A stretch of DNA of 48,221 nt from Acholeplasmatales bacterium. Lineage in GTDB: Bacteria > Bacillota_I > Bacilli_A > Acholeplasmatales > Anaeroplasmataceae. The translations under genes were made by a program, and so were the position numbers. The notes below the pieces were generated by a model. That model did no database searches. It was not told the origin of the DNA and saw only the letters and a program-made list of their open reading frames with translations. The DNA lies in assembly GCA_024698125.1 (NCBI GenBank), contig JAILRQ010000112.1:1-48221 (forward strand), given 5' to 3'. Positions 13,362-24,922 of this stretch are shown here, piece after piece. How positions within the stretch are numbered: position 1 is the first letter of the stretch; each line of letters opens with the position of its first letter.

Positions 13362-14222
13362 CTATATATCAAGGATATCCTTTAGCTCAATTTCCTTTAA
13401 GGCAATTTGAGGCTCAGGATATTTACCCTTAGTTATATTTTTTCTAACCTTCTTAACACTCTTTGGGTTAAGCATATATATTGTGAACAATCCAGAATCA
13501 ATAACCTCTAAGAACTTACCTATGTTTTTCATAAGTAGGCTAAAGCTTATTATCTTTCTTATGATTCCGTCGTCATAAATAAATAGCTGAGCATCAGCTG
13601 GAATAATGAAGGGATTTAAGCCATCCCATTTAGCCGCAACGAAAGCATTTCTTGATGCTGGCTTACGGTAGAACTCAAACTCTACAGGCTCAGCATTATC
13701 ATCTCGATACATTTCCCTTAGATGATTCTTCTGCTCGATATACTGATAAACATGCTCTAGTGTTGTAGCATCCATCTTAGAATAATCCATGAACTCATCC
13801 TCATGCTTATTCTTATAAGCTTGCTTGATCATTTGATATGCCTTAACACAGGTTTGTCTCTTAAATGGCAATGCGTCACTAAATGTTTCATTATAAACCA
13901 TAAGATTATATCTCTTACACATTGTTTCAACAATGTTTAAGATCTTATTTAGCTTATATGAAGGATATAGTAGCTCAATCTCAACTCTAATATTAACATC
14001 CAAGTATTGTGGAGATATTTGCGTTGAGTTTATTACTGATTTATCACCAATAATAAATTGCGCCTTAAGATTTATATCTTCATTATCGTAATATGCAATT
14101 TTTTCAGCTTCTCTAGTTTCCATATCTAAAGTGATGTATTTTGTCTCATTTAGATATTCAAGCAAATCGGCTCTATCGAAGTTTCTGGTATTTTCTTTAA
14201 AGAAATAGTATTTGAACTTCAT
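13362..14222 (-). CDS. Hypothetical protein heading the deoC-deoD operon
   Basis: I do not recognise this 286-residue protein. No signal peptide or membrane segment is evident. It is mixed alpha/beta in composition, with an N-terminal region rich in Tyr, Phe and Lys and a middle Lys/Tyr/His helix-forming part (about 140-185). Its C-terminus is basic (K-S-V-K-K-V-R-K). I favour the ATG at 14222; a GTG at 14234 is directly next to the AAGGG site and so less likely. A clear promoter precedes it and deoC follows 10 bases after, so it is the first gene of the nucleoside-salvage operon. A role tied to nucleosides is only a guess from position. Confidence 0.75.
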   Translation of the reverse strand: MKFKYYFFKENTRNFDRADLLEYLNETKYITLDMETREAEKIAYYDNEDINLKAQFIIGDKSVINSTQISPQYLDVNIRVEIELLYPSYKLNKILNIVETMCKRYNLMVYNETFSDALPFKRQTCVKAYQMIKQAYKNKHEDEFMDYSKMDATTLEHVYQYIEQKNHLREMYRDDNAEPVEFEFYRKPASRNAFVAAKWDGLNPFIIPADAQLFIYDDGIIRKIISFSLLMKNIGKFLEVIDSGLFTIYMLNPKSVKKVRKNITKGKYPEPQIALKEIELKDILDI

Positions 14223-14246
14223 AAACTTGCACACCCTTCACCTTAT

Positions 14247-14335: not shown

Positions 14336-17062
14336 TTACTTATTTAGATTGTCAACAATCTTACGGCAGCGAGGGCATAGCTCTCCCTCATCTACTTCTG
14401 GAACGATTGCCCAGCAACGAGCACATACATATCCCTTAGCAGGCTCTACTGCAACATCAAACTTATCTCCAGCCTTTTCCTCATATTGAGAAACGATTAG
14501 GATTTGTCCAATATTTGAGTTTAAAGCATCGAAGCACTCCTTTGCTTCCTTATCAAGAGTTACTGTAACCTTAGCATTAAAGCTCTTTCCAATAACCTTT
14601 GCGGCTCTAGCGTCCTCAAGAGCCTTATTGATTTGATCACGATACTTCATGAACTTATCAAATGAAGACTCAAGAGCCTTCATCTCCTCAGTAATTGCTG
14701 ATACCTTTGGCATACGAGTTAGATATACATCCTCTGCCTCTCCAAATCCTGATGCATCATATGCCTCAGACATTGTATGAGGGATAATTGGTGATAATAC
14801 CTTAATTAAGGCGTCACAAATATAATAGAATACTGTTTGAGTTGATAATCTTTCCTTTGAAGCTGGATCCTCAATATATAGAATATCCTTAGTGAAGTCT
14901 AGGTAGAATGCACTTAATGTAGTTGATACATAAGCCATAGTCTCCTTATAAACATCATTGAAATCAAACTCATCATAGCAATCATAAACCTTTTGGATGT
15001 ACTCTTGAAGCTTGATATACATATACTTATCAACTGGCTTTAGCTCATCATATGATAAAGCCTTAGACTTATCAAAATCAGAAATGTTTGTTAATAAGAA
15101 CTTTAATGTATTACGAATCTTACGGTAAGACTCAGATACCTGCTTTAGTAGATCCATTGACATAGGCATATCTGCTCTATACTCAACTGATGCTACCCAT
15201 AAACGAAGGATATCTGCACCATATTGGTTACATACCTTATTAGGGTCAACAGTATTACCTAAAGACTTACTCATCTTTCTTCCTTGTCCATCAAGTGTAA
15301 ATCCATGAGATACTACATTCTTATATGGAGCAACTCCTGTAGTTGCAACTCCTGTAATAATTGAAGAGTTGAACCATCCTCTATATTGGTCAGAACCCTC
15401 AAGATATAGATCAGCTGGGTACTTAAGACCACGACGAGCCATTAATCTATGAGATGATCCTGAATCGAACCAAACGTCCATAATGTCATTTTCCTTCTTG
15501 AAAATTCCATTAGGTGATCCTGGGTTAGTATATCCCTCTGGAAGTAGGTCCTTAGCCTCACGCTCGAACCATACATTTGATCCATACTTTCCAAATAGGT
15601 CAGCAACATGCTTTAATACATCCTGGTCAAGGATTGCATCTCCATTCTCACAATAGAAAATAGGAATTGGAACTCCCCAAACTCTTTGACGAGAAATACA
15701 CCAGTCATGTCTATCCTTAATCATGTTAGAGATACGTACATCTCCCCACTTTGGATTCCAGTTAACATTCTTGATTGCGTTTAAAATATCGTCCTTAATA
15801 GGATCAATTGATGCAAACCATTGTGGTGTTGCACGGAAGATTACTGGCTTCTTTGTACGCCAGTCATGAGGATAGCTGTGTGTGATAGGATCTAGTAATA
15901 ATAGGTTTCCAGAAGCCTTCATATCCTCAATAATTGGATCCTCAGATGCCTCATAGAACATACCTGCATACTTACCAGCACCCTCCATTTGCATACCCTT
16001 ATCATCGATTAATACAAGTGTATCTAGACCATAAGCCTTACCAGCCTCATAGTCCTCCTCTCCATATCCTGGAGCGATATGTACAAATCCTGTACCATCA
16101 GTTGTAGTTACATAATCAGCATTAATACATGGAGATACTCTATCATATAATGGGTGCTTATACTTAAGCTTTAATAGCTCATTACCCTTAATATTCTCTA
16201 ATACCTCTACACCCTCTAGGTTAAGCTTTTGTGCAAGAGCATCCTTAAGCTCAGATGCACAAATCATCTTACCATGGTTTGTAGTATTAATTAATACATA
16301 GTCAATTTCTGGTCCAGCAGCTACTGCAAGGTTTCCTGGAAGAGTCCAAGGTGTAGTTGTCCAAACCATAAACTTAGCATCCTTAAAATTACCCTCTCCG
16401 TTAACGATAGGTAATGTAAAATAGATAGCCTTTGATGTAATATCCTTATACTCAATCTCAGCCTCAGCTAAAGCTGACTCTGAAGATGGAGACCAGTATA
16501 CTGGCTTTAATCCCTTATAGATTAATCCTCTTTCTGCCATTTTTGCAAATACAAGGATTTGATCACGCTCAAAATCATGCTGAAGTGTTACATATGGATT
16601 ATCCCAGTCTCCTAAAACTCCAAGACGCTTAAATCCAGCCTTTTGACGCTCAACCTGCTTCCAAGCATACTCCTCACAAAGCTTACGGAACTCAGCCTTC
16701 TCCATAGTCTTACGGTTTACACCCTGCTTTTGAAGTGCTGTCTCAATAGGAAGTCCGTGTGTATCCCATCCTGGAATATATACAGACTTAAATCCCTTCA
16801 TATTCTTATAACGAACTACAAAGTCCTTTAAAATCTTATTTAAGGCATGTCCTAAATGGATATCTCCATTAGCGTATGGAGGTCCATCATGAATTGTGTA
16901 TTCCTCACAACCCTCATTTTGCTTAATAACCTTGTTATATAGGTCCATCTTATCCCATTTTTCTTGGATCTTTGGCTCCTTGTTATTAAGATTACCTCTC
17001 ATTTCAAAAGAGGTTGTACCCATAAATAAGGTATCTTTATAATCCTTCTTCTCGTTTTGCAT
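14336..17062 (-). CDS. ileS: Isoleucyl-tRNA synthetase
   Basis: A 908-residue class I aminoacyl-tRNA synthetase that charges tRNA-Ile. The HIGH motif appears as H-L-G-H (69-72) and the second signature as K-M-S-K-S. Between them lies the editing (CP1) domain with the T-T-P-W-T-L-P-G block. The C-terminus carries two C-x-x-C pairs of a zinc knuckle, typical of bacterial-type IleRS. The start is the ATG at 17062 with AAGGAGG 6 bases upstream; an in-frame extension to 17128 would run through the T-box terminator and is rejected. Expression is controlled by the T-box leader directly upstream, so it should rise when tRNA-Ile is uncharged. Confidence 0.98.
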   Translation of the reverse strand: MQNEKKDYKDTLFMGTTSFEMRGNLNNKEPKIQEKWDKMDLYNKVIKQNEGCEEYTIHDGPPYANGDIHLGHALNKILKDFVVRYKNMKGFKSVYIPGWDTHGLPIETALQKQGVNRKTMEKAEFRKLCEEYAWKQVERQKAGFKRLGVLGDWDNPYVTLQHDFERDQILVFAKMAERGLIYKGLKPVYWSPSSESALAEAEIEYKDITSKAIYFTLPIVNGEGNFKDAKFMVWTTTPWTLPGNLAVAAGPEIDYVLINTTNHGKMICASELKDALAQKLNLEGVEVLENIKGNELLKLKYKHPLYDRVSPCINADYVTTTDGTGFVHIAPGYGEEDYEAGKAYGLDTLVLIDDKGMQMEGAGKYAGMFYEASEDPIIEDMKASGNLLLLDPITHSYPHDWRTKKPVIFRATPQWFASIDPIKDDILNAIKNVNWNPKWGDVRISNMIKDRHDWCISRQRVWGVPIPIFYCENGDAILDQDVLKHVADLFGKYGSNVWFEREAKDLLPEGYTNPGSPNGIFKKENDIMDVWFDSGSSHRLMARRGLKYPADLYLEGSDQYRGWFNSSIITGVATTGVAPYKNVVSHGFTLDGQGRKMSKSLGNTVDPNKVCNQYGADILRLWVASVEYRADMPMSMDLLKQVSESYRKIRNTLKFLLTNISDFDKSKALSYDELKPVDKYMYIKLQEYIQKVYDCYDEFDFNDVYKETMAYVSTTLSAFYLDFTKDILYIEDPASKERLSTQTVFYYICDALIKVLSPIIPHTMSEAYDASGFGEAEDVYLTRMPKVSAITEEMKALESSFDKFMKYRDQINKALEDARAAKVIGKSFNAKVTVTLDKEAKECFDALNSNIGQILIVSQYEEKAGDKFDVAVEPAKGYVCARCWAIVPEVDEGELCPRCRKIVDNLNK

Positions 17063-17081
17063 AATTTCCTCCTTAAAATAT

Positions 17082-17112
17082 AAAAAAATCGTCCTTAAAT
17101 TAAGGACGATTA
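17082..17112 (-). terminator. T-box-controlled terminator of ileS
   Basis: AATCGTCCTTAA/TTAAGGACGATT stem followed by seven U on the minus strand, 20 bases before the ileS start. Its upstream half follows the T-box sequence directly, the standard terminator/antiterminator switch. Confidence 0.9.
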
Positions 17113-17315
17113 TAAACCGTGGTACCACCTTAGTTCAGGAATTAATCCTGCACTCATTAAGCCTGTAACGTAGGCATACGAGGCTTGCTTATCCCAAGCC
17201 CTCCTTTGCTAGTGATCTATAAATACTAATATTTTTAAATCTTTCACCAAATGATTTAATCTCTTTGAAATATTATTTGTATTTAACGTCTAGCATATAA
17301 CGGATTTTTTAATAC
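17082..17315 (-). promoter_or_regulatory. T-box riboswitch (tRNA-Ile sensing) of ileS
   Basis: The T-box core AAGGTGGTACCACGG is at 17117-17131 (minus strand). Its UGGU bulge matches the ACCA end expected for tRNA-Ile. Stem I can be drawn: GCTAG (17290-17294) pairs with CTAGC (17208-17212), and TAAATAC (17279-17285) pairs with GTATTTA (17220-17226). The 3' side of the loop between them reads TAGATCA, placing the specifier codon AUC (17214-17216) before a purine, as in known T-boxes. Uncharged tRNA-Ile should stabilise the antiterminator and switch ileS on. This leader fills almost all of the gap 17063-17364. Confidence 0.93.
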
Positions 17316-17364: not shown

Positions 17365-18033
17365 TTACCAGGCAACAGCTACTCCATCAGCATAATGCCA
17401 ATAGTTTCCTTCAGCCTCTTCCTCTGAATAGTAGTAAACGTGGTCTAATAAATCACTATTGTAATAAGAATCAACATTAACATTTGCCCAATCCTCACTA
17501 CTTCCATTATAGAATACATATTCTAATGATTTACATCCATAGAATGCACTTGAATCAATAAGCTTTAGTGTTGAAGGAAGGATGATTGTATTTAATGATG
17601 AGCATTTATTAAATGCGTGCATCTCAATTTTACATGTACCCTCCTTGATTTCAATATATTCAAGGCCTGTACATAGCATAAATGTTCTTAGTGAAATCAT
17701 ATACATTGAGCTTGATAATGTTACAGACTTAAGAGATGTATCATATGCAAAGCATGAATCTCCTACAACCTGTACTGAATCAGGTATTACAACACTTTCA
17801 AGATATGTCATTTCATAAAATACCATATCATCAATTGAAAGTACCTTCTTACCGTTTTCCTCCTCCTCTGGAATAACAACATCCACAGGATCATCTATTA
17901 AGCATTCAGTAAGTGATAGTCCACCATTTTCAACTATATAATAGAAATCTTCAGTTGAATAAGATACCGTTCCACATCCTACAAGGATAAATAGAAGGGT
18001 AAATATTAAACCAATTGGGAATAATTTTTTCAT
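17365..18033 (-). CDS. Lipoprotein with BspA-type leucine-rich repeats
   Basis: A 222-residue secreted lipoprotein. It has a lysine start, a hydrophobic stretch and a lipobox L-V-G-C with the acylated Cys at residue 20. About four or five BspA-type (LRR_5) repeats follow, with the recurring pattern V-V-I-P-x-S-V-x-x-I/V-x-x-x-x-F-x-x-C/Y-x-x-L-x-x-V, ending in a Tyr/Glu-rich tail. Such repeats are common in surface proteins of gut bacteria and bind proteins. I use the ATG at 18033 with GAGGAG 7 bases upstream; a TTG at 18048 is rejected. It is the last gene of the jet-sepF operon, 21 bases after sepF, and no clear terminator follows. Confidence 0.82.
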   Translation of the reverse strand: MKKLFPIGLIFTLLFILVGCGTVSYSTEDFYYIVENGGLSLTECLIDDPVDVVIPEEEENGKKVLSIDDMVFYEMTYLESVVIPDSVQVVGDSCFAYDTSLKSVTLSSSMYMISLRTFMLCTGLEYIEIKEGTCKIEMHAFNKCSSLNTIILPSTLKLIDSSAFYGCKSLEYVFYNGSSEDWANVNVDSYYNSDLLDHVYYYSEEEAEGNYWHYADGVAVAW

Positions 18034-18054
18034 TATTGTTCTCCTCAAAAGAAA

Positions 18055-18363
18055 TTAGTTCTCCCTTGTATGTTCAATAAACTCCCTTAATGAACCATCT
18101 AGGAATTCTTCCTTTTTAGCAAAAAGGTAGATATCCTCTTTAATCTTTACAGTCTCACCATCAAGCGCATAAGATGCTCCGCTTAAAAAAGCAAGCATCT
18201 TATTATAAGCCATAGGGTCTAGCTCTTGAAAGTTAACAACTATCGGATTATTATCGATAAGCTCCTCAACAAGCTCTGCAGCTCTCTTATCGTTATCCTC
18301 TAGCTTTTCAAATACAATTCTTTTAGAAGCCTTTAGCTTCTCAGGTGATTTATGTCCAAACAT
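18055..18363 (-). CDS. sepF: SepF-like cell division protein, short form
   Basis: A 102-residue protein containing the SepF (DUF552) core: N-P-I-V-V-N-F-Q-E-L-D, then L-A-F-L-S-G-A-S-Y-A-L-D-G and I-K-E-D-I-Y-L-F. SepF forms rings that bundle FtsZ and anchor it to the membrane. B. subtilis SepF has about 150 residues with an N-terminal amphipathic membrane helix; here only about 35 charged residues precede the core and no such helix is obvious. Its ATG shares one base with the jetC stop (TAATG), so translation is coupled to the SMC gene. Whether it binds FtsZ or has been recruited to the SMC complex is open. Confidence 0.82.
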   Translation of the reverse strand: MFGHKSPEKLKASKRIVFEKLEDNDKRAAELVEELIDNNPIVVNFQELDPMAYNKMLAFLSGASYALDGETVKIKEDIYLFAKKEEFLDGSLREFIEHTREN

Positions 18364-21300
18364 TAGTCAGTTACCTCCTCTTCCTCATCGAAGGCAGTCT
18401 TGTTAGCCTTATCAATTACAGATAGGGCCTGGGCTCTTGTTCCCTGACGAACCATGATAAGTGTAGTATTTGTGTATTCCTGTAAAACCTCAATACGCTC
18501 TGCTGATTGTGGGCAGGCAAGGATTAGCTGGATTGGCATTGATGCAATGAACTTCATCATAGCTCTCATACGAGGGAAGTCCATCTTATCGAACACCTCA
18601 TCGAACATTACAAGTCCAATTGTATCCTTAACTCCAACCTTATTATTCTCAAATATACGTACGAATGCGGCAATAATTGCTACATAGAATGGAACCTGAG
18701 TTTCTCCTCCTGAACGAGATTTGAATACCTTAGAATATAGCATTGTCTGTCCATTTCCATCAATAATCTTGATGTCATAGTCCATATATGTACGGTAATC
18801 AGTAAACTTGTTCATTGCACCTTCGCTATTAAGCTCATCCTGTGCAAGGGAAGTAAATAGCTCCTCTAGCTGAGTCTCATACTTAACCTCGAAGTCTGTT
18901 GTAAATAATGACTCTCCTGTGATTTCGTTCTCATTTGTAACCATATCATAGAAGGCACTATATTCACTTGACTTAGGGAAAATGAATTGATATGAATCAG
19001 CACCGAACTTAATCTTAGATAATGTTTCATTAATCTTTCCAATTTCAGCCTCTGCTGAAAGGATATTATTACGAAGCTTAGATAAGAAGTCCTCCTTGAA
19101 GATGATTTCAGCATCCTCACGTGCAGTTCTTACCTTCTTCTCATATTGGATAAGCTCACTCTTTTGTAGCTTATCTAGCTCATTTAAGAACTTCTTAACC
19201 TCAGCAATTCCAACGCTTAATGTTGAATTATAGGCATTAACATACTTGAATTGCTTATTAAGAAGGGCATCACATTGCGTATTGTATAATGCCTCCTGAT
19301 TCTTAAGCTTTTGCTCAAACTCATCAAGAGCCTTAGTAGGATTTGCTGAGTTAGAAATCTCATCAAATTGATCCTTAGCCTGGTTCTCAATAAGGATATT
19401 ATCCTTAGCAAGCTCCTTAAGCTCCTTATCATACTCTACTAGATTCTTTTCAAGGTCAGTAATACGTTGCTGAGCTTGACCAACAGAGATACGGATTCCT
19501 CCAATCTCCTGGTTGATTTGAACCTTCTTTTCATCATTAGCCTTAAGTGATTCTAATACCTTGTCATAATCAGACTTAACATCTGATACTCCCATAGCCT
19601 TAGAATTATTCTTTTGCTTCTTTAAATCCTTAATCTTAGAATCAAGGTTTTGAGCCTTAATTGCGTTATCAAGTGAATTAATTAAGGCGTTGAAATCAAG
19701 AGTCTTAATTAATTGAAGCTCATCGTCTAATGCTTGGATATTATGAGTGATATCATAATACTTATTCTTTTGCTCTAATGCCTTAGAGTTCCAGTACTCT
19801 GTTTGATCCTGAAGGGCATTAGCTCCAATGAATGGCTTATCAATATTTGGATTTAGAGCACGAACTGTATATCCTCTATAAATTAATCCATCATTTGTAA
19901 TAGATGTATTATAGTTTTCAAGCTCTTGCTCGTTATCACACATGATAACTCCACCACATGTAAAGTTGATATAGTACTGTGCATCAACATTCTCTGATGA
20001 CATGATTGATGCAAGTGAGTTCTTCTCAAATGACTTATACTTGCTGATTTGCTTTGTATTTACAAGTCCTGTACCATAGAAGTTATACTTATTCTTAATA
20101 CGTGCAAATACAGATAGGGCTGTATCATAATACTTAGGCTCTACAATCATATCAAAACGTCTATTTGCAAGGAAGATTTCAATTGTATCTGCCCAAGTCT
20201 TATCCTTAATATCGATAAGCTCTGCAAAGAAATGTACTGATACATCAAATCCGTAGATATTCTTAAGTCCTAAGGCAATATCATTACGAAGCTGTAATAG
20301 CTTTGGATTATATCTAAGCTTATTGTTAGATAATCCCTTTAATGCTTGTGAAATCTCATTGATTTCAGCAAGACACTCTGATCTTTCCTTAGATAAAGAT
20401 CCCTTTTCAATATTGATTTCCTCAATAGTATTTTCAAGTCTATTCTCAACATCAATTAATGTAAGCTTAGTCTTTTCACTATCAAAGTTAGATACTGAAG
20501 ATAATGGAAGGTTTGCCATCTCAGAATAAATCTTCTTATCAGATGCCATCTTTCGAAGCTCCATTACAGAATCCTTAAACTCTGAAGCCTTCTTTACATA
20601 AAGTGACATAGAGTCCTTTACTTCATTATATTCTCTTGAAGCCTTCTCTAGCTGACGGTCAATATATTCCTCAGCCTTGAATTCCTCACTATTAGCTAAA
20701 ATATTATATAGCTCATTACGTCTATCCTCTAGAGCTGCCTTCTCCTCTGCAAGGTCTGCAAGAGAGTCAGTCTTTAGCTGACGCTGCTCATCATATAAAG
20801 CAATTTGATTTTGGGCATCCTCAATTGAAGACTTAACATTCATAACATCAAATAGCTTCATTAAATATTCATAATAATTCTTTTGCTCCTCAAACTCCTC
20901 AATAGTTTGATATGTAGCTTGGATATCCTCAAGGTCTGTAATCTTATTCTTAATTACATTAAGAGTTCCCTCAAGCTCCTTATAAGCACGAATTGAATCC
21001 TGAATTGAAGAAACATCGATTTGCTTCTCCTCTAGGATATTTTGGTAAATAAAGTCCTTAACGTTTGCGATTGGCTTGAAGGCAAGTGCCTTAACAATTA
21101 GCTTGAAGTAATCCTCGTTAATTGAACCAAAGGCGTTACGGAATCCTCTCTTAGCCTCGTTCTTAGTAGAATAAATCTCCATATCACGGTTATTCTTCTT
21201 AAACTCCATGATTGAATAGATATGTCCACCCTCACCTAGGTATAGCTTATCATCGATTGCACAATGTCCTCTATACATAATATGCTTTGCAGGTCCGATT

Positions 21301-21644
21301 TCTCCAACTGCATCAATTACAGCTCCAAGAACAAATGTATCCTCTGTTGTTTCATTATAGAACTCTAGACAGATATGACCTGTTACATCTCCATCACGAA
21401 GATATTCCTTATCCTCTGCACCAAGCTTACACTTAACATAGCCCTTAAGATCACGCTTTCCCTTTTCATTAGCTGCAAGGTTAAATGTTTGATCTCCTCC
21501 AGTTAAAATAAATGTAATGGCATCTAGGATTGTTGACTTTCCTGAGGCATTTTGTCCTGTAAGTAGGATATTATCCTTAACCTCAATAGTTTCGTTTGAA
21601 AGATAATGCCAGTTAATTAATCTAATTTTCTTAAGCTTAATCAT
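18363..21644 (-). CDS. jetC: SMC-like ATPase JetC (MksB/MukB-type condensin subunit)
   Basis: A 1093-residue SMC-superfamily ATPase of the Wadjet JetC/MksB group. Walker A is G-Q-N-A-S-G-K-S-T (30-38), the ABC signature S-G-G-E is at 978-981, and Walker B ends D1015-E1016, so ATP binding and hydrolysis look intact. Long Glu/Lys coiled coils (about 215-425 and 630-890) flank a central hinge region (about 440-620). This complex holds and extrudes DNA loops. It lies directly after jetA and jetB, two bases from jetB. The TOPRIM nuclease JetD expected next in a Wadjet system is missing; sepF follows instead. Confidence 0.92.
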   Translation of the reverse strand: MIKLKKIRLINWHYLSNETIEVKDNILLTGQNASGKSTILDAITFILTGGDQTFNLAANEKGKRDLKGYVKCKLGAEDKEYLRDGDVTGHICLEFYNETTEDTFVLGAVIDAVGEIGPAKHIMYRGHCAIDDKLYLGEGGHIYSIMEFKKNNRDMEIYSTKNEAKRGFRNAFGSINEDYFKLIVKALAFKPIANVKDFIYQNILEEKQIDVSSIQDSIRAYKELEGTLNVIKNKITDLEDIQATYQTIEEFEEQKNYYEYLMKLFDVMNVKSSIEDAQNQIALYDEQRQLKTDSLADLAEEKAALEDRRNELYNILANSEEFKAEEYIDRQLEKASREYNEVKDSMSLYVKKASEFKDSVMELRKMASDKKIYSEMANLPLSSVSNFDSEKTKLTLIDVENRLENTIEEINIEKGSLSKERSECLAEINEISQALKGLSNNKLRYNPKLLQLRNDIALGLKNIYGFDVSVHFFAELIDIKDKTWADTIEIFLANRRFDMIVEPKYYDTALSVFARIKNKYNFYGTGLVNTKQISKYKSFEKNSLASIMSSENVDAQYYINFTCGGVIMCDNEQELENYNTSITNDGLIYRGYTVRALNPNIDKPFIGANALQDQTEYWNSKALEQKNKYYDITHNIQALDDELQLIKTLDFNALINSLDNAIKAQNLDSKIKDLKKQKNNSKAMGVSDVKSDYDKVLESLKANDEKKVQINQEIGGIRISVGQAQQRITDLEKNLVEYDKELKELAKDNILIENQAKDQFDEISNSANPTKALDEFEQKLKNQEALYNTQCDALLNKQFKYVNAYNSTLSVGIAEVKKFLNELDKLQKSELIQYEKKVRTAREDAEIIFKEDFLSKLRNNILSAEAEIGKINETLSKIKFGADSYQFIFPKSSEYSAFYDMVTNENEITGESLFTTDFEVKYETQLEELFTSLAQDELNSEGAMNKFTDYRTYMDYDIKIIDGNGQTMLYSKVFKSRSGGETQVPFYVAIIAAFVRIFENNKVGVKDTIGLVMFDEVFDKMDFPRMRAMMKFIASMPIQLILACPQSAERIEVLQEYTNTTLIMVRQGTRAQALSVIDKANKTAFDEEEEVTD

Positions 21645-21646
21645 TA

Positions 21647-22231
21647 TTATGCACCCTCACTTTCATCTGAAATATGCTCAATAGTCTCATATACCTCACT
21701 TATTTGCTCAGTATTTACAGCAAATAGAATTGTTGGGTAAATAATGATTCTTGCACTAGATGATGTAATATCACCTAAGATTTCAATAATGTTAAATCTT
21801 CTAAATAATCTTAGGGATTCAATTAAATCAGTCTTATTAATTCTCTTCTTTATTTCAAGATAATTATACTTAGTATGAATGTCTTCAACATTAACACTAA
21901 TATTTTCATTTAAAGATGTCTCCTTCATCTTTTCATGATATAGAATACGAAGAATTAATAAAACGATTGTATGGTCTCTTTTTAGCTTAATTGAGTTAGC
22001 TGCTGGTGTACCTGATAAATATGCTACACCAAGGTCAGTATTAACATTTAGCTCATATCCTAATATGTTAAAGAATTCCTCAAATAAGTCCTTGTAGTTA
22101 ATTAGGAAATAATAATCATTTTTGTTGTTTTCCTTATCACGGCAAAGGAAAGTATTTGCAAGCATCTTATTACAAATGCTTTGGAAGCTATCCTTTTGTC
22201 CTTGAGAGAATGATTCATAATTTGTAAGCAT
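21647..22231 (-). CDS. jetB: JetB-like (MksE/DUF4194) subunit of the SMC complex
   Basis: A 194-residue protein of the JetB/MksE family, the KITE (tandem winged-helix) subunit that binds the kleisin JetA and DNA. The recognisable features are the A-N-T-F-L-C-R region near residue 24-30, a central L-R-I-L-Y-H-E-K helix and a C-terminal winged-helix stretch ending in I-I-I-Y-P-T-I. No enzyme motif is expected. Its ATG shares one base with the jetA stop (TAATG), which ties the stoichiometry of the two. Assignment rests on sequence pattern, size and the jetA-jetB-jetC order. Confidence 0.88.
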   Translation of the reverse strand: MLTNYESFSQGQKDSFQSICNKMLANTFLCRDKENNKNDYYFLINYKDLFEEFFNILGYELNVNTDLGVAYLSGTPAANSIKLKRDHTIVLLILRILYHEKMKETSLNENISVNVEDIHTKYNYLEIKKRINKTDLIESLRLFRRFNIIEILGDITSSSARIIIYPTILFAVNTEQISEVYETIEHISDESEGA

Positions 22232-23682
22232 TAGATTTGTTCCTCCCTTGTAATCTTGAAGTTAGCCATCTTGAAGTAATCCGTTTGGATGGTATTCTCC
22301 ATTTTCTCAATCTTATAATTGTGCTCTGATGCAAATATTAGCACATAAATACACATTAACGCTTCATCAAATGTTCCGTTAGGATTTACGATAGACATAG
22401 CCTCAAGTGAGCCATTTTCATCAAGCCTTCTTAAAATAAAATCTGTCATATAGGCTGGATCATATTTACTTCTAAATCCTTGAAGTACTGATGAATCAAG
22501 TGCTTCAAAATCAAATCTATCTAAATCGATTGATGAGAAATCACTACGGCTATACTTTCCTCTTGGGCTATATAGTGATCCCTCACTAAATCCTTTTACT
22601 GAAGGAAGGTTTACAACGCTATTAATCTTAGTCATAGCTCTATCAACCTTACCAAGCTTATTCTCATTCTTAATATACTTTAGCATTGTATTAAGCTTAC
22701 CTATAATGTTATCCTCCTCTGTAAGAAGGAACTTAACCTTACCAATTGTTGAATTGATATAATTCTTATTCTTCTCATCAATTCCTGTAATGAAGGAATC
22801 AAGCTCATTAAAGATATCAACCATTTCATCAATATCACGGTTAGCCTTATCCATTGCAAGGTTAGCATTTCTAAATCTATACATATAGTCAGATGCAATC
22901 TGCTCCATAGCTATAGAGTTTGATGAAATCTCCTCAAGCCTTGTTACAATCTTTAGTCGATACTTATTGATATTATCTGCAGTCTTAAGCTTTGTATATG
23001 TTGGCTCATAAATCTCTGCATTATATTCCATAAGCTTTGCCATAAGGTCCTTAATTTCAGATGTTTCAACAACTGAATTAATGTAATCCTTAATTCTTGA
23101 ATCCATCTTTCTTAAGGAACGGATTAAAAGCTTAGTGTTCTTATATACCTCAGATATCATTAAAGGATAATCTAGGTCATCATTAGTTAATAATGAATAA
23201 ATTGTATAAATATAACCCTTATATTCGTTAGGGTCTACTATTGCAGTGAAGGTTGGTGTAGCATAGTCATCATCCTCACTATAATAATCATATGTAAGAG
23301 TTTGTGGACAGATTTGCTGTAATGCCTCAATCATTGTAATAGCAACATCTGTAAAGTTTAAAACCTCTGTATAATCAGGTGTTAAATCAATATAGATCCA
23401 TCCGCATTCCTCAAGACGACGTATAACTAGATTTGCAGTCTCACGCATGTTTTCTGGCTGCTCTAGGCTATCATGGAACTCATCCTCATCATCTTCATAT
23501 AAATTATCATGATTTTCAAGATAAATGGTAAGCTCATCTGCAATAAGCTTTCTATCTACTCCAAGAATAGACCCTGTCTCATATATGGCAAAAGCTTGCA
23601 TCGCGCAAGCTGTATATAAACGTCTATTTTTACTTGATAGGATAGAAAAAAAGTTTTGTGGTATTATATCAAATAATTCCAT
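22231..23682 (-). CDS. jetA: JetA-like (MksF) kleisin subunit of the SMC complex
   Basis: A 483-residue protein with the JetA/MksF layout. An N-terminal winged-helix-like domain opens with L-F-D-I-I-P-Q-N-F-F-S-I-L, an acidic stretch (near 75-90) follows, then a long helical middle (about 190-350) and a C-terminal winged helix. In the family this kleisin bridges the two SMC heads. The start is the ATG at 23682: the family begins with this LFDIIP-type sequence, and the upstream ATG at 23709 lies at the predicted transcription start. It is the first gene of the operon. Confidence 0.9.
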   Translation of the reverse strand: MELFDIIPQNFFSILSSKNRRLYTACAMQAFAIYETGSILGVDRKLIADELTIYLENHDNLYEDDEDEFHDSLEQPENMRETANLVIRRLEECGWIYIDLTPDYTEVLNFTDVAITMIEALQQICPQTLTYDYYSEDDDYATPTFTAIVDPNEYKGYIYTIYSLLTNDDLDYPLMISEVYKNTKLLIRSLRKMDSRIKDYINSVVETSEIKDLMAKLMEYNAEIYEPTYTKLKTADNINKYRLKIVTRLEEISSNSIAMEQIASDYMYRFRNANLAMDKANRDIDEMVDIFNELDSFITGIDEKNKNYINSTIGKVKFLLTEEDNIIGKLNTMLKYIKNENKLGKVDRAMTKINSVVNLPSVKGFSEGSLYSPRGKYSRSDFSSIDLDRFDFEALDSSVLQGFRSKYDPAYMTDFILRRLDENGSLEAMSIVNPNGTFDEALMCIYVLIFASEHNYKIEKMENTIQTDYFKMANFKITREEQI

Positions 23683-23713
23683 TAATGCATTCACTCCCTT
23701 ATAACACATTAAT

Positions 23714-23742
23714 ATTTTAACATTAAAGTGCTTTAATTACAA
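23714..23742 (-). promoter_or_regulatory. Promoter of the jetABC-sepF-lipoprotein operon
   Basis: TTGTAA (23737-23742) and TAAAAT (23714-23719) are 17 bp apart on the minus strand, with a TGT extension before the -10 box. The expected start near 23707 gives a 25-base leader. Confidence 0.65.
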
Positions 23743-23753
23743 TTAAATTATTA

Positions 23754-23782
23754 GAAAAAAAGGGAATATTAATATTCCCTTT
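23754..23782 (-). terminator. Intrinsic terminator of ychF
   Basis: Perfect 24-base palindrome AAAGGGAATATT/AATATTCCCTTT followed by a U run on the minus strand, 9 bases after the ychF stop. Confidence 0.85.
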
Positions 23783-23791
23783 ATAATACTC

Positions 23792-24892
23792 TTATACATT
23801 AAACTTGAATAGCATTACGTCTCCGTCCTGAACTACGTAATCCTTACCCTCTTGTCTAACTCTTCCAGCCTCTCTACACTTAAGATATGAACCAGCGTTT
23901 ACTAGGTCATCATAAGATACAGTTTCAGCTCTAATAAATCCTCTTTGGAAGTCAGTATGGATAATACCTGCACATTCTGGTGCAGTCATTCCCTTACGGA
24001 ATGTCCATGCTCTAACCTCCTTCTCTCCTGCTGTAAAGTATGTAGCAAGTCCTAATAGGTCATAGGTTGCTCTTACAAGCTTGTTAAGTCCTGCCTCAGG
24101 AATTCCAAGCTCCTCAAGATACATTGGCTTATCCTCTTCAGGAAGCTCTGAAATCTCAGCCTCAATTTCAGCAGAGATAGGTACTACCTGTGATCCCTCA
24201 GCCTTTGCATATTCAACTAGGGCATTATAATACTTAGACTGCTCAGGATTTCCGATTTCTTCCTCGCTCATGTTAGCAACATACATAATCTTCTTTCCTG
24301 TAAGGAATCCATAGTTCTTAATAATCTCTAGCTCTTCCTTTGATAAATCTAGGCTTCTTACTGGCTTATTTTCTAGTAATGTCTCTTCAATTCTCTTTAA
24401 AATTGCATACTCAACCTCAGCATTATCCATCTTAGATTGTGCCTTCTTTGCAATCTTTTGAATACGGTTTTGAACAACCTCTAGGTCTGCAAGAGCAAGC
24501 TCAATACCAATAGTCTCAACGTCACGAACAGGGTCTACTGTTCCCTCAACGTGAGTAATATTATCATCGTCGAAGCATCTTACAACCTCAACGATTGCGT
24601 CTACCTGTCTAATATTTCCAAGGAATTGGTTTCCAAGTCCTTCACCCTTAGATGCACCCTTTACAAGTCCTGCAATATCAGTAAACTCACAAATAGCGTG
24701 TACTAAAGACTTTGGCTTATACATTTCGTTAAGCTTATCTAGACGTACATCAGGAACCTCAACGACTCCCACATTAGGCTCAATTGTGGCAAATGGGTAG
24801 TTAGCCGCAAGTGCTCCAGCCTTAGTAATTGCATTAAATAATGTTGACTTTCCAACGTTAGGAAGACCAACTATTCCGGCAGTTAGTGCCAT
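23792..24892 (-). CDS. ychF: Redox/translation-associated GTPase YchF
   Basis: A 366-residue member of the Obg-related YchF/OLA1 family. The G1 loop is G-L-P-N-V-G-K-S-T (9-17), G3 is D-I-A-G-L, and the G4 position is N-M-S-E instead of N-K-x-D, as expected for this ATP-preferring family. A coiled-coil middle and a C-terminal TGS domain follow. YchF associates with ribosomes and responds to oxidative stress in other bacteria. I place the start at the ATG at 24892, with GGAG 8 bases upstream, rather than a GTG at 24901. It has its own promoter and terminator. Confidence 0.96.
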   Translation of the reverse strand: MALTAGIVGLPNVGKSTLFNAITKAGALAANYPFATIEPNVGVVEVPDVRLDKLNEMYKPKSLVHAICEFTDIAGLVKGASKGEGLGNQFLGNIRQVDAIVEVVRCFDDDNITHVEGTVDPVRDVETIGIELALADLEVVQNRIQKIAKKAQSKMDNAEVEYAILKRIEETLLENKPVRSLDLSKEELEIIKNYGFLTGKKIMYVANMSEEEIGNPEQSKYYNALVEYAKAEGSQVVPISAEIEAEISELPEEDKPMYLEELGIPEAGLNKLVRATYDLLGLATYFTAGEKEVRAWTFRKGMTAPECAGIIHTDFQRGFIRAETVSYDDLVNAGSYLKCREAGRVRQEGKDYVVQDGDVMLFKFNV

Positions 24893-24922
24893 ATTCATCA
24901 CTCCAATTTTTATAACACTACT

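What the first reader, a model, noticed from the sequence alone, without database searches (positions are those of the whole stretch)
18055..23682. Wadjet-family jetABC operon without jetD, continued by sepF
The three structural genes of a Wadjet/MksBEF complex are intact (JetC Walker A 30-38, signature 978-981, Walker B D1015-E1016), but the TOPRIM nuclease JetD, which is required for plasmid cleavage, is missing. In its place a SepF-like gene begins on the last base of the jetC stop. This suggests a nuclease-free, housekeeping loop-extruding complex linked to cell division, rather than a defence system. It may be an uncharacterised condensin-divisome link.
Basis: partly seen in the sequence, partly recalled or inferred. 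Interest (0 to 1): 0.75.

Follow-up and report, generated by a model that had tools for sequence, protein, structure and literature searches.

The report
Nuclease-free Wadjet as sole condensin
A bacterial family of wall-less gut microbes and its relatives have lost the usual chromosome-folding machine (Smc-ScpAB) and instead carry a Wadjet-type DNA-looping complex without its DNA-cutting subunit, encoded in one unbroken gene block with the cell-division gene sepF, which suggests a plasmid-defence machine became their housekeeping chromosome organiser.

Summary
In detail: jetA-jetB-jetC-sepF, all on the minus strand (23709-18055), ATPase motifs intact and invariant, no jetD here or elsewhere in this 94.6%-complete genome. 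The block recurs in all 51 family loci read (Anaeroplasmataceae), usually with jetC stop and sepF start overlapping, although outer neighbours often changed. None of 100 sampled genomes of the order has ScpA or ScpB, and SMC-hinge hits fall essentially only inside JetC, so JetABC is the only condensin-type complex found. Across 296 Bacilli-class genomes JetC and ScpA are largely mutually exclusive (10 have both), and JetD accompanies JetC mainly where Smc-ScpAB is kept. A nuclease-free JetABC has probably replaced Smc-ScpAB as housekeeping condensin, in at least two JetC lineages (AU p=3e-8).

Correction: sepF did not take jetD's place. In sister families sepF lies in an ancestral ftsZ-ychF-ylmE-sepF-ileS cluster; jetABC moved in beside it. 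Block retention indicates selection on the operon, but a physical JetABC-SepF link is untested. The principle (MksBEF from JetABCD by JetD loss) is already proposed for Pseudomonas, which keeps Smc; sole-condensin use in these lineages and the sepF operon were not found in the papers I could search.

The parts
23714..23742 (-). promoter-like site (TTGTAA-17-TAAAAT, TG before the second hexamer) directly before jetA
   Evidence: consensus match only, total matches not above shuffles
23759..23782 (-). terminator-like hairpin between ychF and jetA, suggesting the operon starts at jetA
   Evidence: consensus scan; 5 found against 3.4 in shuffles
22231..23709 (-). jetA, kleisin subunit (MksF-like), 492 aa
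   Evidence: PF18982 2e-72, PADLOC JetA1 1e-114; conserved JetA alignment
21647..22231 (-). jetB, KITE subunit (MksE-like), 194 aa
   Evidence: PF13835 1e-32, PF21980 MksE 6e-8, PADLOC JetB1 3e-67
18363..21644 (-). jetC, SMC-like ATPase (MksB-like), 1093 aa; Walker A 30-38, signature 978-981, Walker B 1015-1016
   Evidence: PADLOC JetC1 7e-301; invariant motifs; profile aligns full length to solved JetC 8as8/9qxt and 8dk2
18055..18363 (-). sepF, FtsZ membrane anchor, 102 aa; starts on the last base of the jetC stop; only SepF above cut-off in the genome
   Evidence: PF04472 1e-12, fold match to B. subtilis SepF
17365..18048 (-). fast-evolving lipoprotein with BspA-type leucine-rich repeats, a few bases after sepF; not conserved with the block, probably not part of the system
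   Evidence: PF13306 7e-25; 75% aa identity and dN/dS 0.19 to G001, against 95-97% for jetABC-sepF
23792..24901 (-). ychF GTPase, upstream neighbour retained from the ancestral sepF cluster
   Evidence: (ychF-ylmE-sepF in f2-f5)
14336..17128 (-). ileS (T-box leader at 17309-17099), downstream neighbour retained from the ancestral sepF cluster

Best explanation
This is a nuclease-free type I Wadjet/MksBEF-like loop-extruding complex that serves as the housekeeping condensin. Smc, ScpA and ScpB were lost in this lineage and JetABC, freed of JetD, took over chromosome folding and sister separation. Proposed mechanism: JetC dimers with JetA (kleisin) and JetB (KITE) bind DNA and use ATP to reel in chromosomal loops; without JetD the fully extruded, stalled state that triggers plasmid cutting in Wadjet has no consequence, so the motor only folds DNA. 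In the Anaeroplasmataceae ancestor jetABC was inserted next to sepF in the division cluster, and sepF became the translationally coupled last gene of the block, so condensin and Z-ring anchor are made together. Shown: genes, motifs, absence of JetD and of Smc-ScpAB, universality, conserved operon, purifying selection. Inferred: loop extrusion and housekeeping role. Speculative: direct contact of JetABC with SepF.
For: JetC in all 54 other family members searched, including genomes of 97-100% completeness. ScpA 0/100 and ScpB 0/100 genomes of the order, with 9-11 of 14 controls ringing; weak SMC_hinge hits fall inside JetC itself, apart from one partial hit below the cut-off. JetD in 7/100 genomes, never beside the sepF-linked copy; where the locus was read it accompanies second, divergent JetABC copies or an f5 copy. 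In 296 class genomes: JetC only 73, ScpA only 132, both 10, neither 81. JetD lies beside a JetC in 7 of 9 readable ScpA-positive genomes and in all Clostridia loci fetched. JetD-less copies fall in separate lineages; holding f1/f2/f4/f23/f24 and f3 together is rejected, p-AU 2.6e-8. jetC-sepF adjacency 51/51, gap -14 to +10 in 50, whereas ychF is kept upstream in 26/45 and ileS downstream in 16/46, and neither in 10 loci. Low dN/dS. FtsZ present.
Against: No functional data. 81 class genomes, including family f5 and most of the small-genome genus g23, have neither JetC nor ScpA, so some relatives live without a detectable condensin and JetABC need not be essential. Haloplasmataceae have JetD-less JetABC copies together with Smc-ScpAB, so JetD loss does not require Smc loss. 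The JetC/ScpA pattern is not corrected for shared ancestry. A highly diverged Smc, or an unrelated nuclease acting in trans, could be missed.
Confidence: 0.77

Rival explanations
1. JetABC-SepF is a physical condensin-divisome module: SepF tethers the complex to the Z-ring or membrane so that chromosome clearance and constriction are coordinated (an addition to the best explanation, about the sepF link).
For: Block retained in all 51 loci although outer neighbours changed in many; overlap of jetC stop and sepF start; in G031 ftsZ itself lies directly upstream of jetA.
Against: In f2, f3, f4, f23 and f24 the same type of complex exists without sepF linkage. sepF sequence and fold are ordinary. 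Operon retention is equally explained by sepF depending on the jetA promoter.
Confidence: 0.2
2. The block is only a co-expression unit frozen by gene overlap: jetABC inserted upstream of sepF, captured its transcription and translation, and separation is now costly; there is no direct relation between the proteins (an alternative reading of the sepF link only).
For: sepF-ileS order is ancestral; overlap and Shine-Dalgarno-like site inside jetC; no terminator between jetC and sepF.
Against: The block persists over deep divergence (JetC 49-55% identity) and many rearrangements; both proteins would act at the same stage of the cell cycle.
Confidence: 0.6
3. It is still an anti-plasmid Wadjet that uses another nuclease encoded elsewhere.
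For: All three structural subunits are of the Wadjet type I family; in Wadjet the extrusion step is carried by JetABC.
Against: No JetD domain in this genome or in nearly all relatives; presence in every family member is unlike a defence system; true JetABCD occurs as a separate second copy in some of the same genomes.
Confidence: 0.06
4. A degenerate remnant of a Wadjet system without function.
For: JetD is missing.
Against: Invariant ATPase motifs, dN/dS about 0.05, universal presence in the family.
Confidence: 0.01

Closest known systems
Wadjet type I (JetABCD, MksBEFG, EptABCD)
   Same: JetA, JetB and JetC families with matching PADLOC type I models; full-length match to solved JetC (8as8, 9qxt, 8dk2); same gene order
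   Different: no JetD/MksG nuclease in the genome; present in all family members instead of patchily; followed by sepF
MksBEF of Pseudomonas aeruginosa (thought to be JetABCD that lost JetD; PMC10586767)
   Same: JetD-less complex with a chromosomal role
   Different: Pseudomonas keeps Smc; here Smc, ScpA and ScpB are undetectable in the whole order, and the lineage is unrelated
MukBEF of enterobacteria
   Same: SMC-like complex that replaced Smc-ScpAB (PMC10586767)
   Different: JetABC here is much closer to type I Wadjet by sequence; an independent replacement
ylm/sepF division cluster (sepF ... divIVA-ileS in B. subtilis, from general knowledge)
   Same: sepF upstream of ileS; ftsZ-ychF-ylmE-sepF-ileS in sister families
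   Different: jetABC occupies the ylmE slot next to sepF in Anaeroplasmataceae

Membership tests
Wadjet type I defence system | JetA, JetB and JetC subunits in that order | tested here: met
Wadjet type I defence system | JetC ATPase motifs intact | tested here: met
Wadjet type I defence system | JetD/MksG TOPRIM nuclease (PF09983) in the operon or genome | tested here: not met
   so it is not filed as a Wadjet defence system
Wadjet type I defence system | restricts circular plasmids | not testable with these tools
   needs transformation or plasmid stability assays
MksBEF-type bacterial condensin | SMC-like ATPase + kleisin + KITE, without MksG | tested here: met
MksBEF-type bacterial condensin | acts on the chromosome (folding, segregation) | not testable with these tools
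   indirect support only: universality and absence of Smc-ScpAB
Smc-ScpAB condensin | ScpA and ScpB present | tested here: not met
   0/100 genomes of the order
SepF (FtsZ anchor) | SepF fold and PF04472 match | tested here: met
SepF (FtsZ anchor) | FtsZ partner in the genome | tested here: met
   FtsZ 9.7e-128 on contig C52
SepF (FtsZ anchor) | membrane binding by an N-terminal amphipathic helix | tested here: inconclusive
   short MFGHK/MGLFGKK-type N-terminus, no helix predicted in residues 1-11, lower confidence there

The most novel reading that the evidence does not exclude
Anaeroplasmataceae and relatives use a domesticated, nuclease-free Wadjet complex as their only condensin, and in this family it is physically tied to the Z-ring through SepF, so that chromosome loop extrusion and division form one module.
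Probability: 0.17. Interest if true: 0.9.

Novelty: new variant of a known kind. Interest (0 to 1): 0.7.

Why it matters
It would be an independent case, besides MukBEF, of a defence-related SMC complex taking over the whole chromosome, in lineages that include cultivable wall-less bacteria. It offers a natural test of whether JetABC extrudes loops on chromosomes and how SMC complexes switch between immunity and housekeeping. The review PMC10586767 states that chromosomal activity has not been documented for JetABCD and proposes that MksBEF arose by loss of JetD; here that change coincides with loss of Smc-ScpAB and appears in at least two JetC lineages, with Haloplasmataceae showing both states together.

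Tried and rejected
Defence system: rejected for lack of JetD and for universality. Chance adjacency of sepF: rejected (51/51 loci). 'SepF replaced JetD': rejected by the ancestral sepF cluster in f2-f5. Linkage as mere leftover synteny: rejected in its simple form, because both outer neighbours are gone in 10 loci while the block stays. Single origin of the JetD-less JetC of f1-type and f3: rejected by AU test on a 32-protein tree; the same test on 69 proteins did not finish. JetA structure prediction did not finish, so its kleisin identity rests on profile matches. Literature searches found no description of JetABC as sole condensin in these orders or of a sepF link; Petrushenko 2011 is not held, and most subscription papers are missing, so novelty is not certain.

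Full report
Observation. The region holds four genes on the minus strand in the order jetA (23709-22231), jetB (22231-21647), jetC (21644-18363), sepF (18363-18055). Profile searches identify JetA (PF18982, 2e-72), JetB (DUF4194 1e-32; MksE 6e-8), JetC (PADLOC type I JetC, 7e-301) and SepF (PF04472, 1e-12). The sepF ATG overlaps the jetC stop (TAATG) with a ribosome-binding-like GAGGAGG inside jetC. A terminator-like hairpin and a promoter-like site lie directly before jetA (consensus matches only). SepF is modelled with pLDDT 95 and matches B. subtilis SepF and the C. glutamicum SepF-FtsZ complex.

Genome context. The window lies in a 1.50 Mb, 94.6% complete genome. It has no JetD, no ScpA, no ScpB and no SMC hinge match, a single SepF over the family cut-off and one FtsZ on another contig. 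In the same way f24 matches Izimaplasma/Izemoplasmatales records, f12 a Haloplasma contractile bin, and f4 the bin Lab288P1bin79, which GTDB puts in Acholeplasmatales according to PMC12786226. That f3 is Acholeplasmataceae and its genus g23 the phytoplasmas is my inference from relationship and genome size.

Distribution. All 54 other f1 genomes have JetC, and the SepF hit lies beside it in all but one (G042, where JetC is incomplete and no SepF was found). In 51 f1 loci read in detail jetC is directly followed by sepF, with a gap of -14 to +10 bases in 50 and +67 in one. Upstream, ychF is kept within two genes in 26 of 45 loci; downstream, ileS within two genes in 16 of 46; in 10 loci neither is kept. 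The four-gene block is therefore more stable than its surroundings. Between this genome and its congener dN/dS is 0.047-0.057 for jetA, jetB and jetC and 0.036 for sepF, like the housekeeping neighbours ychF (0.031) and ileS (0.093).

How the block arose. In f2, f3 and f5 sepF sits in a cluster with ychF and ylmE upstream and ileS downstream, with ftsZ and tgt further upstream in f3 and f5; f4 has ychF-ylmE-sepF-ileS too. In the same order jetABC lies elsewhere without jetD: before ptsI or other genes in f3, before a beta-lactamase-like gene in f2, before groES-groEL in f4. In the window the order is ychF-jetABC-sepF-lipoprotein-ileS. So jetABC entered the sepF cluster in the f1 ancestor, in the slot of ylmE.

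Replacement of Smc-ScpAB. ScpA and ScpB are missing from all 100 sampled genomes of the order while the controls ring; the SMC_hinge matches in the order are weak and inside JetC, apart from one partial hit below the cut-off. In 296 class genomes drawn at 90% completeness or more JetC occurs in 83 and ScpA in 142; 10 have both, 73 JetC only, 132 ScpA only, 81 neither. The SMC hinge follows ScpA. Fisher p=1e-15, but this ignores shared ancestry and should be read as a pattern, not a test. Genomes with both belong to f12 and f17, and 7 of 9 readable ones have jetD beside a jetC; in families f1, f2, f3, f4, f7, f11, f21, f23 and f24, where JetC occurs without ScpA, the main copy has no jetD. Clostridial loci all have jetD. 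Where JetD exists in f1 and the locus was read, it accompanies a second, divergent JetABC (G003, G022, G025, G028); G012 has a JetD hit whose surroundings were not examined.

Phylogeny. JetC of f1, f2, f4, f23 and f24 form one well supported clade without JetD; f3 lies apart, nearer Haloplasmataceae JetD-less copies. Holding the two groups together is rejected (p-AU 2.6e-8, 32 proteins, LG+G4). So nuclease-free JetABC arose, or was acquired, at least twice. Haloplasmataceae carry JetD-less copies with Smc-ScpAB, and G135 has JetD-less, JetD-bearing and Smc systems together, a plausible intermediate state.

Mechanism. Established knowledge: in Wadjet, JetABC extrudes DNA and JetD cuts small circles (total extrusion model, PMC10586767). 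Without JetD the same motor would fold DNA without cutting. The review proposes exactly this origin for Pseudomonas MksBEF, which works beside Smc. Here the complex is the only condensin-type complex detected, so I conclude (0.77) that it is the housekeeping condensin. Loop extrusion and chromosomal action are inferred, not shown. That SepF and JetABC touch is possible (0.2); co-expression alone, frozen by gene overlap, is more likely (0.6). These two figures concern only the sepF link and are not alternatives to the condensin conclusion.

Comparison and novelty. By composition it is an MksBEF-type condensin; it fails the defining JetD feature of a Wadjet defence system. The kind is known; the variant (sole condensin of several Bacilli families, in one operon with the division gene sepF in one of them) was not found in the open papers searched, with the limit that Petrushenko 2011 and most subscription papers are not held.

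Noticed in passing
window 13362-14234 (-); L153 9319-10206, L154 5060-5941, L157 4091-4495: A ~290 aa protein family without a significant Pfam match is conserved after ileS (often ileS-surE-[290 aa]-deoC) in f1, f2, f3 and f5, and its homologues lie directly downstream of JetD-less jetC, on the opposite strand, in Haloplasmataceae (E 1e-50, 5e-58, 3e-21).
   Followed up: partly
window 17309-17099 (-): T-box leader upstream of ileS (Rfam RF00230, 93.4 bits).
   Followed up: yes
L148 and L154 (G135), L147 and L152 (G151): Haloplasmataceae genomes hold Smc-ScpAB, a full JetABCD and a JetD-less JetABC side by side, a possible transition state.
   Followed up: partly
families f5 and genus g23 of the order; 81 of 296 class genomes: Neither JetC nor ScpA detected: these bacteria seem to lack any known condensin of these types.
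   Followed up: no
L196 / G031:C18: ftsZ lies directly upstream of jetA, giving ftsZ-jetA-jetB-jetC-sepF in one Anaeroplasmataceae genome.
   Followed up: partly
window 17365-18048 (-): Fast-evolving BspA-type leucine-rich-repeat lipoprotein between sepF and ileS in this genus (75% identity between congeners against 95-97% for jetABC-sepF).
   Followed up: partly
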